DNA of 64,000 nucleotides, taken from Lachnospiraceae bacterium (lineage in GTDB: Bacteria; Bacillota; Clostridia; Lachnospirales; Lachnospiraceae). Positions within the stretch are counted from its first letter, which is position 1. Each line of letters opens with the position of its first letter. Below the pieces are notes generated by a model. The model saw nothing but the letters and a program-made list of their open reading frames with translations. It did no database searches and had not been told where the DNA came from. Positions 21,191 through 50,331 of this stretch are shown here, in pieces. The DNA is taken from positions 1-64,000 of the forward strand of contig JAFWZV010000020.1 in the NCBI GenBank assembly GCA_017517305.1. The letters run 5' to 3'. The translations under genes were made by a program, and so were the position numbers.

Positions 21191-21313
21191 AAAGGGCTGT
21201 GCAATAAACGTATCGGCCGACCTGCCTAGGGATTCGACATCGCTGACACTTGAAACGGTCAGCTCAGTCGAACCCTGTCGCGGTCGGAATGAGGTTTGTT
21301 GGCACAGCCCTTT
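21191..21313 (-). repeat. Structured repeat element, copy A
   Basis: This copy lies between two convergent genes. AAAGGGCTGTGC (21191-21202) pairs perfectly with GCACAGCCCTTT (21302-21313), extended by AATAAAC/GTTTGTT. Inside, CCGACC pairs with GGTCGG, an internal loop TGCCTA/TGTCGC follows, then GGG/CCC, TTCGAC/GTCGAA (21233-21238 with 21267-21272) and the apical GCTGAC/GTCAGC hairpin. Read on the minus strand it has the same order of conserved blocks as the copies at 47018 and 49401. It lies where a terminator would be, but neither side has a strong T-run. I know of no matching family. Confidence 0.85.
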
Positions 21314-21342
21314 GTATATAGTTGATTAATACTTTCTAATAT

Positions 21343-29817: not shown

Positions 29818-29831
29818 TACTATGACAATTA

Positions 29832-29924
29832 AATGGGGTGCTGGTAATTCAGCCGGCTGAGATGCAGTGTGGTCACTGTGGACCCTTATAACCTGATCCG
29901 GATAATGCCGGCGTAGGAATTATT
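29832..29924 (+). promoter_or_regulatory. TPP riboswitch (THI element)
   Basis: The thiamine pyrophosphate aptamer is seen clearly: GGGGTGCTGG near the start, GGCTGAGATG in the middle (29855-29864), then ACCCTTATAACCTGATC (29882-29898) and GGATAATGCCGGCGTAGGAA. These are the invariant pyrimidine- and pyrophosphate-binding segments. It controls the ABC transporter genes downstream, ending transcription when TPP is abundant, through the terminator at 29955. Confidence 0.97.
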
Positions 29925-29954
29925 TTATATTTACGTATAAAGTGTATTTGTATG

Positions 29955-46950: not shown

Positions 46951-47002
46951 AAGGCATTAATCGTACAAAATATTCTTAAATATTGTATGATTAGTGCCTT
47001 TT
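46951..47002. terminator. Terminator after the symporter gene
   Basis: AAGGCATTAATCGTACA (46951-46967) pairs with 46984-47000 with two wobble pairs, followed by TTGAATTATA. It isolates the symporter transcript from the structured element at 47018. Confidence 0.7.
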
Positions 47003-47017
47003 GAATTATACGTAAGG

Positions 47018-47137
47018 CAGGCTGCGCCAAAAAGATTATTCCGGCCGCGACAGGGTCCCACTAAGCTGACCGTTTTAAGTGTCAGCGCGGTGGGAACCCT
47101 AGGCAGGCCGGCCAATATAGTATATCTGCGCAGCCTG
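47018..47137 (+). repeat. Structured repeat element, copy B
   Basis: CAGGCTGCGC (47018-47027) pairs with GCGCAGCCTG (47128-47137). Inside are CCGGCC/GGCCGG (47041-47046 with 47106-47111), the conserved loop GCGACA against TAGGCA, GGG/CCC, TCCCAC/GTGGGA (47056-47061 with 47090-47095), and the apical GCTGAC/GTCAGC hairpin. It lies in the 5' leader region of the PTS gene, 43 bases before its start codon, unlike copies A and C, which are at gene ends. It has no T-run. Confidence 0.85.
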
Positions 47138-47179: not shown

Positions 47180-49384
47180 ATGAAAGATAAAATTTTTGGA
47201 GTTCTACAGCGTGTGGGAAGATCCTTCATGCTTCCTATAGCCATCCTACCCGTTGCCGGATTACTCTTGGGTATAGGTGGCTCTCTTACCAACCTTACCA
47301 TGCTAGAAACCTACGGACTGATGGGGATTATGGGACCAGGAACAGCTCTTAACGCAGCATTCCAGGTTATGAGTAAGGCGGGAGACATAGTATTTGCCAA
47401 CCTTCCTATAATATTCGCTATAGGTGTTGCTATTGGTATGGCAAAGAAGGAAAAGGAGGTTGCAGCTTTAGCTGCTGTAATCGCATTTCTTATAATGCAT
47501 GCATCCATAAGTGCGCTTATAACTATCAACGGTGGCTCAGACAATCTGCTTGAAGGAGCAGTAACCTCAGTGGTAGGAATCGAGTCACTTCAGATGGGTG
47601 TATTCGGTGGTATTATTGTAGGTCTTGGAGTAGCGGCCCTTCACAATAGATTCTATAAGATAGAACTTCCTCAGGTGTTATCCTTCTTCGGAGGAACTAG
47701 ATTTGTGCCAATAATAAGCGCATTGGTATTTACCTTTGTGGGAATTCTTATGTATTTTATTTGGCCTCCTATACAGGCGGGAATATACGCAGTAGGGGAC
47801 ATTGTTTTACGTTCAGGATACGCTGGAACATGGGTGTACGGACTTATGGAGAGAGCTCTCATCCCATTTGGTCTTCATCATGTGTTCTACCTACCGTTTT
47901 GGCAGACGGCAGTAGGTGGAACCCTAGAGGTTGGAGGACAGATAATCGAGGGTGCACAGAACATCTTTTTTGCACAGCTGGCTGATCCTAACACAACCCA
48001 GTTTGCAGTATCTGCTACCAGATTTATGTCCGGTAAATTCCCTCTTATGATATTCGGTCTTCCGGGAGCTGCTTACGCCATGTACAGATGCGCCATACCT
48101 GAAAATAGAAAGAAGGTAGGTGGACTTCTGCTATCTGCAGCCTTAACCTCTATGCTGACAGGTATAACTGAACCTATTGAGTTTACCTTCCTGTTCGTAG
48201 CACCGCTTTTATATGTGATTCACTGTGTATTTGCTGGTCTTGCCTATATGCTTATGCACGTGTTTAACGTAGGTGTTGGTATGACCTTCTCCGGAGGACT
48301 TATAGATTTGTTCCTCTTCGGAATACTTCAGGGAAATGATAAGACTAACTGGATATGGGTTGTAATAGTAGGTGTATTCTACTTTATAGTTTACTACCTG
48401 TTATTCTCATTCCTGATAAAAAGATTCAATTACAAGACACCGGGAAGAGGTGAGGAAGAGGAGGTTAAGTTATATACCAGAAGTGATGTGGATGCAAGGA
48501 AGGCGACAAATGGTAACACAACAGCCATTGATGCATCCGATGGAACCATCAATGCAACAAGCTTAAAACAACAGATGTCAGAAACTGACCGAGTATCAGC
48601 CGGAATTTTAATAGGCTTAGGTGGACGAGATAACATCTCTGACATTGATTGTTGCGCTACTAGACTTAGGTGTACAGTGTTTAATCCTGACCTTGTAAAT
48701 CAGGAGAGATTAAGCGCTACAGGTGCATCAGGAGTGATAAAGAAGGGACAGGGTGTACAGATAATTTACGGTCCGAGAGTATCGGTTATAAAGTCAAATC
48801 TTGAGGACTATATGGATAGAAATATCTCAGATGATTTAGATGATATCACAGAGTTAAGTTCGCTAGATAAGAATATGAACCTTCGTGAAGTAGATGATAA
48901 TAAGCCAGAAGATAAAGATGATAAGATTCACAGGGTAGTGACAATTTCATCTCCAATGAATGGATTGGTGAGAAAAATTGAGGATGCTCCTGATGAGGTG
49001 TTCTCACGAAGGATGTTAGGAGATGGAGTAATCATAGAACCAATGGACGGCGTGGTGTATGCTCCTGAGGACGGAACAGTAAGCATGTTATTTGACACAA
49101 AACACGCTGTGGGCTTTGAGACAGATTCTGGTATAGAACTTCTTATTCATGTGGGAATTGATACGGTAAATCTTGGCGGTAAAGGCTTTAACCCAGTAGT
49201 TAAAGTAGGTCAGCATCTTAAAAAGGGTGAAGTAATAATGAACTTTGACCTAGAACAGATACGCTCCACAGCCAAGGCTATGTCAACACCGATCATATGT
49301 ACAAGCCTTACCGAAGACCAGAGGATAACTGTTTTAAAATACGGTGATATAAAAGCAGGAGAACCACTGCTGAAGGTTAATTAA
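47180..49384 (+). CDS. Glucose-type PTS transporter, IICBA fusion
   Basis: About 734 residues. The IIC domain (1-400) begins RVGRSFMLPIAILPVAGLLLG and ends with the SGGLIDLFLFGIL region; about ten helices form the sugar path. IIB follows with NISDIDCCATRLRC, whose Cys near residue 490 takes the phosphate, and IIA is at about 590-734 with ELLIHVGIDTVN, His near 657. It imports and phosphorylates a glucose- or N-acetylglucosamine-type sugar. Start ATG 47180 follows AAAAGGAG. An open frame continues upstream through copy B of the structured repeat, but that stretch is an unlikely coding sequence. The sugar is not certain. Confidence 0.92.
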   Translation: MKDKIFGVLQRVGRSFMLPIAILPVAGLLLGIGGSLTNLTMLETYGLMGIMGPGTALNAAFQVMSKAGDIVFANLPIIFAIGVAIGMAKKEKEVAALAAVIAFLIMHASISALITINGGSDNLLEGAVTSVVGIESLQMGVFGGIIVGLGVAALHNRFYKIELPQVLSFFGGTRFVPIISALVFTFVGILMYFIWPPIQAGIYAVGDIVLRSGYAGTWVYGLMERALIPFGLHHVFYLPFWQTAVGGTLEVGGQIIEGAQNIFFAQLADPNTTQFAVSATRFMSGKFPLMIFGLPGAAYAMYRCAIPENRKKVGGLLLSAALTSMLTGITEPIEFTFLFVAPLLYVIHCVFAGLAYMLMHVFNVGVGMTFSGGLIDLFLFGILQGNDKTNWIWVVIVGVFYFIVYYLLFSFLIKRFNYKTPGRGEEEEVKLYTRSDVDARKATNGNTTAIDASDGTINATSLKQQMSETDRVSAGILIGLGGRDNISDIDCCATRLRCTVFNPDLVNQERLSATGASGVIKKGQGVQIIYGPRVSVIKSNLEDYMDRNISDDLDDITELSSLDKNMNLREVDDNKPEDKDDKIHRVVTISSPMNGLVRKIEDAPDEVFSRRMLGDGVIIEPMDGVVYAPEDGTVSMLFDTKHAVGFETDSGIELLIHVGIDTVNLGGKGFNPVVKVGQHLKKGEVIMNFDLEQIRSTAKAMSTPIICTSLTEDQRITVLKYGDIKAGEPLLKVN

Positions 49385-49400
49385 AAGAAAGCTTATAAAT

Positions 49401-49535
49401 TAATAAGGGGCTGTGTGCCTATATATTACCTTCCGACCGCGCCAGGGTAATGCGCAGCTGACCGTGTTAGTGTCAGCGAAGCATTATCCCTAGGCAGGTC
49501 GGCCGGTAAAGTAAATTGCACACAGCCCTTTATTA
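49401..49535 (+). repeat. Structured repeat element, copy C
   Basis: The 18-base outer helix pairs 49401-49418 with 49518-49535 and includes GGGCTGTGTGC/GCACACAGCCC. CCGACC/GGTCGG follow (49433-49438 with 49497-49502), then GCGCCA against TAGGCA, GGG/CCC, TAATGC/GCATTA (49448-49453 with 49481-49486) and the apical GCTGAC/GTCAGC. It lies between the PTS gene and the convergent amino acid transporter operon. The 6-bp helix TAATGC/GCATTA has nothing in common with those of A and B in sequence, but pairs equally well. Confidence 0.88.
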
Positions 49536-49542
49536 AATTCAT

Positions 49543-50331
49543 TTATAAAACTTTAGACAAAAACTCCTTAAGTCTAGGATGCTTTGGATTACTGAAGAAC
49601 TCTTCAGGTGTGCCACTTTCAAGAATCTTACCCTCGTCTATGAATAAAATCTTGTTAGCCACCTCTCGGGCAAATCCCATCTCATGAGTTACGATAATCA
49701 TAGTCATGCCTTCTTCAGCCAGAGATTTCATAAGGTCTAAAACCTCACCAACCATCTCAGGGTCAAGAGCACTTGTAGGCTCATCGAAGAGAATAACATC
49801 TGGGTTCATGGCAAGAGCACGAACTATTGCAACTCTTTGCTTCTGACCACCAGAAAGGGTAGAAGGATAAACATCTGCCTTATCAGCCAGGCCTATACGC
49901 TCTAGAAGCTTTATAGCATTCTCTCTAGCGTTCTTAATAATTTCAGCCTTAGTAGTATTATAGGCAGGGTCATCTTTAAGCTTCTTTCTCTTAGCTTTCT
50001 TCATATCCTTAACCTGAACGTGAACAGGAGCAAGCATAATATTTTCTATAACTGTCTTATTATTAAATAGATTAAAATGCTGGAACACCATACCCATCTT
50101 ACGACGATGAATATTAATATCAACCTTTGTGTCAGCTATGTCTACACCATTGAAGATAATCTGACCACCAGTAGGGTCCTCCATACAATTTAAGCATCTA
50201 AGGAAGGTACTTTTGCCTGAGCCGGATGGTCCGATTACACAAATGATATCTCCCTTATTAATCTTCACGTCGATACCATTTAAGACATCAATATCTCCAA
50301 ATTTTTTAGTAAGATTAATTACGTCTATCAC
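49543..50331 (-). CDS. Polar amino acid ABC transporter ATPase with helical insertion
   Basis: A 262-residue ATPase of the GlnQ class with Walker [10 protein letters not shown] near residue 34, LSGGQKQR, Walker [12 protein letters not shown] and VTHEMGFA. Between Q-loop and signature there is a Lys-rich insertion of about 30 residues ([17 protein letters not shown]), seen in other clostridial members. GTG 50331 is preceded by GGAG; it overlaps the permease gene by 17 bases. Partner of the permease and the permuted binding lipoprotein. Confidence 0.87.

What the first reader, a model, noticed from the sequence alone, without database searches (positions are those of the whole stretch)
49401..49535. 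Three-copy structured element with perfect compensatory base changes
Elements at 21191-21313 (minus), 47018-47137 and 49401-49535 (plus) share the order CCGRCC - GCGMCA - GGG - 6-bp helix - GCTGAC hairpin GTCAGC - CCC - TAGGCA - GGYCGG and an outer helix with GGCTGYG/CRCAGCC. The 6-bp helix is TTCGAC/GTCGAA in one, TCCCAC/GTGGGA in the next and TAATGC/GCATTA in the third: sequence changes completely but pairing is perfect. The CCGRCC/GGYCGG helix also changes by a compensatory pair. The loop GCGMCA/TAGGCA and the apical hairpin stay fixed. This is the pattern of a conserved RNA (or structured DNA) rather than of a plain terminator. I know of no named family that fits; a published Firmicute RNA motif is possible and was not checked.
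Basis: partly seen in the sequence, partly recalled or inferred. Interest (0 to 1): 0.88.

Follow-up and report, generated by a model that had tools for sequence, protein, structure and literature searches.

The report
Hairpin repeats nested in terminator loops
A roughly 100-base folded DNA repeat occurs about 41 times in this bacterial genome and in a few related species, mostly inside the loops of hairpins that look like transcript terminators; it is swapped and flipped between species and matches no catalogued RNA family, and what moves it is unknown.

Summary
The three window elements belong to a dispersed family: 41 copies in this genome, 10-43 model matches in four related species, a diverged form in two more genomes of the genus, none detected in the other 30 sampled, no Rfam match. 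Pairing holds in 98.3% of cells over 97 distinct copies (215 double changes; shuffles 57). The fixed part is an asymmetric internal loop, GCGMCA/YAGGCA.

The RNA reading is only partly supported. Of 136 copies placed, 78 lie between convergent genes and orientation is mixed. In 133 of 143, linkers and core sit inside an outer stem that is often terminator-like. At the same place related species may have a plain terminator (once with the identical stem and a 3-nt loop, usually with another stem), a different core in the same stem, or the insert flipped. Apical loops are genome-specific.

Best reading: a miniature, non-autonomous DNA repeat lodged in intrinsic-terminator loops, spread or homogenised within each genome by an unidentified mechanism. 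No Y1 transposase, reverse transcriptase or IS110 transposase was found in this genome. Gain versus loss, target duplication, termination and present activity are unproven.

The parts
49400..49418 (+). E1 outer stem, 5' arm TTAATAAGGGGCTGTGTGC (terminator-like, A-rich 5' side)
   Evidence: stem search; fold
49419..49432 (+). E1 left linker (14 nt)
49433..49502 (+). E1 core: CCGACC helix, GCGCCA/TAGGCA internal loop, TAATGC/GCATTA variable helix, GCTGAC apical hairpin
49503..49517 (+). E1 right linker (15 nt) CCGGTAAAGTAAATT
49518..49536 (+). E1 outer stem, 3' arm GCACACAGCCCTTTATTAA
   Evidence: G009 has a plain terminator-like hairpin at this site
47016..47027 (+). E2 outer stem, 5' arm GGCAGGCTGCGC
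47041..47111 (+). E2 core, in the leader of the PTS EIICBA gene; TCCCAC/GTGGGA helix
47128..47139 (+). E2 outer stem, 3' arm GCGCAGCCTGTT
21302..21314 (-). E3 outer stem, 5' arm CAAAGGGCTGTGC (read on minus strand)
21217..21287 (-). E3 core, between convergent LuxC-like and aspartate aminotransferase genes; TTCGAC/GTCGAA helix
21190..21202 (-). E3 outer stem, 3' arm GCACAGCCCTTTG (read on minus strand)

Best explanation
The element is a ~100-nt non-autonomous dispersed DNA repeat (about 14-nt linker + 71-nt hairpin core + 15-nt linker, the linkers forming a weak terminal inverted repeat). It lives in the apical loop of intrinsic-terminator-like hairpins, mainly between convergent genes. The single strand folds; the conserved asymmetric internal loop (GMCA/YAG with a bulged A), set in freely changing helices, is the likely recognition site of a lineage-specific DNA-processing protein. 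Because the element is itself a hairpin, putting it at the tip of a terminator leaves a longer hairpin, so the terminator can keep working and the insertion is tolerated. Copies occur in either orientation, are replaced or flipped in situ, and are homogenised within each genome. Shown: copy number, structure, position, exchange and flipping between species, one element-free terminator with the identical stem. Inferred: transposition (rather than recombination alone) as the cause, the protein, retained termination.
For: Family: 41 copies in G000. In 61 genomes the model hits 7, all of one genus; matches (antisense shadows included): G000 45, G018 43, G003 41, G009 28, G031 10, G032 4, G012 2; none in the other 30 genomes of the genus nor in 24 of other families. 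Position: of 144 parsed copies, the 136 with >=500 nt on both sides lie in convergent gaps 78, tandem sense 31, tandem antisense 21, divergent 6; in 435.6 kb of G000, element gaps are 12 of 31 convergent, 7 of 135 tandem, 0 of 34 divergent. Outer stem above the 95th percentile of mismatched flanks in 133 of 143 copies; outside the stem 4.2 A and 3.5 T per 8 nt, background 2.6 and 2.4. Element-free site: G018 AAAAGACCAGG-TAT-CCTGGTCTTTT where G000 has the element between AAAAGACCAGG and CCTGGTCTTTT (L362). G031 has the same arms 17 nt apart at a second site (L374) and, with one pair changed, 15 nt apart at a third (L358). Insert inverted inside a largely conserved stem: G000 C24/G018 C74, G000 C19/G003 C11, G003 C27/G018 C5. 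Of 87 orthologous pairs 16 are inverted, 3 of these through doublets whose other member is in the same orientation. Apical loops are genome-specific: CGTTTTAAGT in 28 of 39 G000 copies, CGTTTTAGT 17 and CGTGTTAGT 9 of 40 in G018, CGTCTTAAGT 9 of 38 in G003 (loops the regex could not read are not counted).
Against: No mover found: no Y1, RVT_1 or full IS110 match in G000, G003 or G009, and no copy with an intact left half encloses a gene. No target-site duplication could be defined. Of 38 relative loci compared at 14 sites, 30 were readable: by my reading of the folds 21 have a plain hairpin, but only one with the identical stem and a trivial loop and two nearly so; the other stems differ more; 7 have no clear hairpin, one a half element, one another nested hairpin. 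So gain and loss are not polarised. Element-bearing stems are a special class: the innermost six bases contain TGYGC in at least 56 of 133, but 0 of 65 plain terminator-like gaps scored so and 4 of 160, nested variants counted apart, in a looser scan; a few unscored plain hairpins do resemble them (e.g. CAAAAGGATGTGT/GCACATCCTTTTG). Part of the stem may thus belong to the element or be a target preference. The five main carriers have the most similar PTS protein (86-97%, G018 partly 77%; others 80% or less), so many sites may simply be inherited.
Confidence: 0.56

Rival explanations
1. A structured RNA element at transcript 3' ends (and a few leaders): a lineage-specific protein binds the internal loop in the RNA to modulate termination or protect 3' ends; copies spread by recombination because they are useful.
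For: Strong covariation, conserved internal loop, many copies 30-50 nt after a stop codon, E2 in the leader of the PTS gene, G-U 26 above A-C 14 cells, more tandem copies sense than antisense, 31 to 21.
Against: The sense excess is small; flips inside the same stem; G-U and A-C occur in 10 and 9 columns; neighbours in the window are unrelated genes (5 proteins).
Confidence: 0.23
2. Not mobile at all: an inherited set of about 40 terminators whose inner hairpins are homogenised by gene conversion and template switching between copies, with loss in some species.
For: 65 site groups from 144 copies, 38 with at least two copies; genome-specific apical loops; replacement of cores inside conserved stems.
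Against: 27 of 65 groups hold one copy only (incomplete sets); a plain 3-nt-loop terminator with the identical stem in G018; copies with the same core type sit in different stems and flanks.
Confidence: 0.16
3. REPIN/REP-type element moved by a REP-associated tyrosine (Y1) transposase.
For: Extragenic, palindromic, repetitive, inverted doublets in places (G009 C80, G018 C32).
Against: No Y1_Tnp match in G000, G003, G009, G018, G012 and G032 (assemblies 80-99% complete); one 43-aa fragment in G031.
Confidence: 0.03

Closest known systems
REPINs / REP sequences with RAYT (TnpA-REP) transposases (PMC3116915, abstract and outline seen)
   Same: Extragenic, hairpin-forming, non-autonomous, dispersed, occasional inverted doublets.
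   Different: ~100 nt rather than 20-40 bp REPs (size from the abstract start of PMC3733652); sits inside terminator-like loops; no Y1 transposase found in six of seven carriers.
MITE-like and ERIC/bcr1-type structured repeats of bacteria (features recalled; PMC2267715, a survey of stem-loop repeat families, passages seen)
   Same: Short, imperfectly palindromic, intergenic, conserved fold, copy number of tens.
   Different: Internal-loop signature with freely changing helices; exchangeable and flippable inside conserved stems; no target duplication defined.
Intrinsic (Rho-independent) terminators
   Same: Outer stem, often with A/T tracts, position after stop codons and between convergent genes.
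   Different: A second, sequence-constrained ~100-nt hairpin occupies the loop.
Hairpin elements of sponge and fungal mitochondria (PMC2800124, search listing with start of abstract only; fungal double-hairpin elements recalled)
   Same: Small hairpin-forming elements described as repeated invaders; nesting recalled from memory.
   Different: Other genomes, other sequences; no link tested.

Membership tests
Any Rfam 15 family | Score at or above the family's gathering threshold | tested here: not met
   Only a TPP riboswitch in the window; for 49300-49650 at E<=10 one sub-threshold hit (6A RNA, 49345-49401, outside the core)
REP/REPIN with RAYT | Y1 (HUH) transposase in the genome | tested here: not met
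   PF01797 not found in 6 of 7 carriers, 43-aa fragment in G031
REP/REPIN with RAYT | Extragenic palindromic repeat in many copies | tested here: met
Group II intron or other retroelement | Reverse transcriptase in the genome | tested here: not met
   PF00078 not found in G000, G003, G009, G018, G012, G032; two matches in G031
IS110-moved element | IS110 transposase in the genome | tested here: not met
   No full match in G000, G003, G009, G012 (only a 65-66-position match in a frame of about 1300-1430 aa, found in nearly all genomes); full matches in G018, G031, G032
MITE of a DDE transposon | Terminal inverted repeats | tested here: inconclusive
   Linker consensus CAATAAAtTacATT and CCAATAAAgTAAATT, partly complementary
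MITE of a DDE transposon | Target-site duplication | tested here: inconclusive
   Best empty site has a 3-nt loop; no duplication readable
MITE of a DDE transposon | A DDE transposase with matching ends in the genome | not tested
Intrinsic terminator | G+C stem followed by a T tract at gene ends | tested here: inconclusive
   133 of 143 copies have an outer stem; T enrichment is moderate: 31 of 133 with >=5 T in the 8 nt after the stem, 54 of 133 with >=4 A before and >=4 T after; termination itself not testable here
Riboswitch or gene-specific leader | Constant orientation to the gene it serves | tested here: not met
   Mixed orientation, mostly convergent gaps; gene identity looked at only for five window proteins

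The most novel reading that the evidence does not exclude
A class of mobile DNA hairpins whose target is the tip of other hairpins: it enters the loops of terminators in either orientation, can itself be entered at its own tip by a second hairpin element (G000 C21:88070, one case), and is recognised through an asymmetric internal loop by an enzyme that is not a Y1 transposase, reverse transcriptase or IS110 transposase.
Probability: 0.32. Interest if true: 0.78.

Novelty: new variant of a known kind. Interest (0 to 1): 0.6.

Why it matters
If right, terminator loops are a safe harbour for mobile DNA: a hairpin put into a hairpin's tip can spread without breaking gene expression. The family offers a natural series of full, empty, flipped and replaced sites with which to find the enzyme and ask how paired arms change together. 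It also warns that strong covariation in bacterial intergenic repeats need not mean a functional RNA.

Tried and rejected
Rejected: (1) a named RNA family; five nested or related loci gave only five hits far below gathering score, in L164, four microRNA-type and one histone-type. (2) Phage, plasmid or virus origin: no exact match of the strict pattern in IMG/VR, no blastn match of element E2 in PLSDB or INPHARED. (3) A widespread order-level family: in 295 genomes of the order the looser pattern gives 26 hits in the own genome; in the other 294, by my count, 40 hits in 32 genomes and 47 hits of the reversed control. Of 29 such loci none reaches 5 of 6 lower pairs; of 23 hits in carrier loci 23 have 5 or 6 lower pairs. 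Single hits in G001, G006, G014 and G035 and two in G032 also look like chance: the five loci tested do not pair (the second G032 hit, C71, was not tested). An Aminobacter genome has 5 hits against 0 controls, but none of 6 loci reaches 5 lower pairs. (4) Y1, RT and IS110 as mover. (5) An autonomous copy: of 40 left halves, 39 have a full-length model match and C21:88070 has its right half beyond a nested hairpin, not a gene.

Led nowhere: paper searches gave nothing on repeats inside terminator loops; 64 and 65 led to the REP and stem-loop repeat papers (limited library and terms, so no claim that it is unpublished). Of 40 loci fetched for empty sites L383 and L390 were not analysed, and 8 of the 38 analysed failed because one flank did not align (L381, L382, L384, L385, L387, L388, L389, L391); L379 and L386 aligned weakly on one side. 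G330 (the MAG with L127) showed no second copy in 307 kb of 4.0 Mb. Rows dropped: 144 copies passed the regex (G000 39, G018 40, G003 38, G009 21, G031 6), so some truncated or diverged copies, including G000 C8:14864 and C21:88070, are not; one search used 136 and 143 of 144; one search used 100 copies. The 87 pairs include doublets and one duplicated contig region of G018. The ORF caller is crude, and the regions were chosen partly because they hold elements. Model hits used stricter filters and at most 75 scored candidates a genome, so weak copies may be missed.

Full report
OBSERVATION. The three elements are present at the stated coordinates. Each folds into one long interrupted hairpin with z-scores of -10.3, -8.7 and -7.5. 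Rfam 15 has no match above threshold; the E1 region at E<=10 gives only a sub-threshold hit beside the core. The window is G000:C20:1-64000 of a 2.72 Mb, 98.7% complete assembly.

FAMILY. The left half of the core occurs 40 times in the genome with up to two mismatches, the reversed control once. A covariance model from 30 copies finds 46 matches, six of them antisense shadows, so 40 places; with C21:88070, seen only by pattern, 41. Among 61 genomes the model hits 7, all in this genus of 37 sampled: 45 matches in G000 (shadows included), 43 G018, 41 G003, 28 G009, 10 G031, and weak ones in G032 (4) and G012 (2). The first five have the most similar PTS protein (86-97% identity, in G018 97% over 554 residues and 77% over the rest; next 80% over part of the protein, then 75% and 74%), so they may be a clade. 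Outside the genus one locus (L127, a Bacillota MAG) has the loop signature with 6 of 6 lower and 5 of 6 inner pairs; no second copy was found in 307 kb of it. Looser-pattern hits in the rest of the order number 40, against 47 for the reversed control (my count), and do not pair (0 of 29 with 5 or more lower pairs).

STRUCTURE. On 100 copies, 97 distinct, 98.3% of cells pair, 10 of 23 pairs change on both sides, 215 cells show double changes (shuffled mean 57), and sliding the partner by 1-3 columns drops pairing to at most 43.4%. This alignment is fitted to the model. A MAFFT alignment of 30 own copies with outer stems has 35 predicted pairs, 19 with double changes. What stays nearly fixed is GCGMCAGG and CCYAGGCA. 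In the diverged G032/G012 copies the helices have other sequences but these letters remain: 5 of 6 copies read have 6 of 6 lower and 6 of 6 inner pairs, the sixth 5 and 6 (a further row, L285, is chance). One-sided wobbles are few: G-U 26 and A-C 14 of 2226 cells, in 10 and 9 columns. That is not a strong excess of G-U, though G-U is the larger number.

PLACE. Of 136 copies with enough flank, 78 lie between convergent genes, 31 tandem sense, 21 tandem antisense, 6 divergent; many cores start 30-50 nt after a stop codon (crude ORF calls). In 435.6 kb of G000, chosen partly for containing elements, the element is in 12 of 31 convergent gaps, 7 of 135 tandem and 0 of 34 divergent. E1 and E3 are convergent; E2 lies in the leader of a PTS EIICBA gene.

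TERMINATOR LOOPS. In 133 of 143 copies the flanks form an outer stem stronger than the 95th percentile of mismatched flanks, median 14 bp, with linkers of 14 and 15 nt to the core. The T tract is moderate: 31 of 133 have 5 or more T in the 8 nt after the stem. Fourteen sites were looked up in six relatives; of 38 loci compared 30 were readable. By my reading of the folds 21 have a plain hairpin, 7 none that is clear (L365-L369, L371, L379), one a half-deleted element (L357) and one a different nested hairpin (L355). Clearest case: G000 C8:129023 has the element between AAAAGACCAGG and CCTGGTCTTTT; G018 has AAAAGACCAGG-TAT-CCTGGTCTTTT (L362). At G000 C24:6117 the stem GGACAAGGGAATC/GATTCCCTTGTCC is shared with G018 (insert flipped) and G031 (arms 17 nt apart, no element, L374). 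At C6:74742 G031 keeps the stem with one pair changed and 15 nt between the arms (L358), and G003 has another plain terminator. At C10:152450, G018, G003 and G031 have plain terminators with other stems. At E1 G009 has a plain terminator-like hairpin; at E2 G031 has an 18-nt hairpin. So most plain hairpins at these places have other stems than the G000 copy; only one is a clean empty counterpart.

TURNOVER. The 144 copies fall into 65 site groups, 38 with more than one copy; one group of 20 chains several places. Of 87 orthologous pairs with both flanks aligned, 71 have the same and 16 the opposite orientation (3 of the 16 are doublets with a same-orientation member). Core identity averages 0.84, against 0.79 between random copies of different genomes. 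Window element E3 and its G031 counterpart have 95.8% identical flanks but cores 75% identical. Apical loops are typical of each genome.

MOVER. Not found. Y1_Tnp, RVT_1 and full IS110 matches are all missing from G000, G003 and G009; DDE families were not searched. The short PF01548 matches in ~1400-aa frames in nearly every genome are probably PolC (recalled, not tested).

MECHANISM. I commit to a miniature, non-autonomous DNA hairpin that enters terminator loops or is exchanged there. Shown: repetition, structure, place, flips, replacements, one clean empty site. Inferred: an enzyme reading the internal loop, insertion as the main direction, terminators that still work. Against it: no mover, no target duplication, gain and loss not polarised, and a biased set of outer stems (TGYGC innermost in at least 56 of 133; 0 of 65 plain ones; 4 of 160), so part of the stem may travel with the element.

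KNOWN THINGS. It works most like REPINs (PMC3116915, abstract and outline seen) and MITE/ERIC/bcr1-type repeats (recalled), but the Y1 test fails, so I do not file it as a REPIN. Eight paper searches listed nothing on repeats lodged in terminator loops; the library is partial and only listings, one abstract and passages of PMC2267715 were seen.

Noticed in passing
L164 (G000:C21:87000-89200), around 1071-1300: A copy whose apical loop holds a second, ~140-nt folded element (GAGTCGTGC...GCACGACTT); the 301-nt stretch folds as DNA at -68.7 kcal/mol, z -9.05. A similar GAGTCGTGC...GCACGACT arrangement is in L355 (G009).
   Followed up: partly
L127, 7014-7082: Single relative with the same internal-loop signature in a Bacillota MAG outside the genus.
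   Followed up: partly
G009 C80:20948/21086, G018 C32:229/388, G009 C29:482/832: Closely spaced inverted pairs of the element, like BIME doublets.
   Followed up: no
G000 C8:14864, G018 C8:1803 and C89:18701, G031 C340:9484: Recurrent variant right half reading TAGGCTTAC instead of TAGGCAGG, disturbing the lower helix in a similar way in three genomes.
   Followed up: no
orthologues of G000 C10:152450 (L352, L353, L354): Plain terminators at the same place have quite different stems in related species although flanking sequence aligns: terminators seem to turn over fast here.
   Followed up: no
window 29824-29936: TPP riboswitch, the only Rfam hit of the window.
   Followed up: no
window about 46952-46998: Plain hairpin GGCATTAATCGTACAA...TTGTATGATTAGTGCC followed by TTTT between the Na/Ala symporter gene and E2, probably that gene's own terminator.
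   Followed up: no
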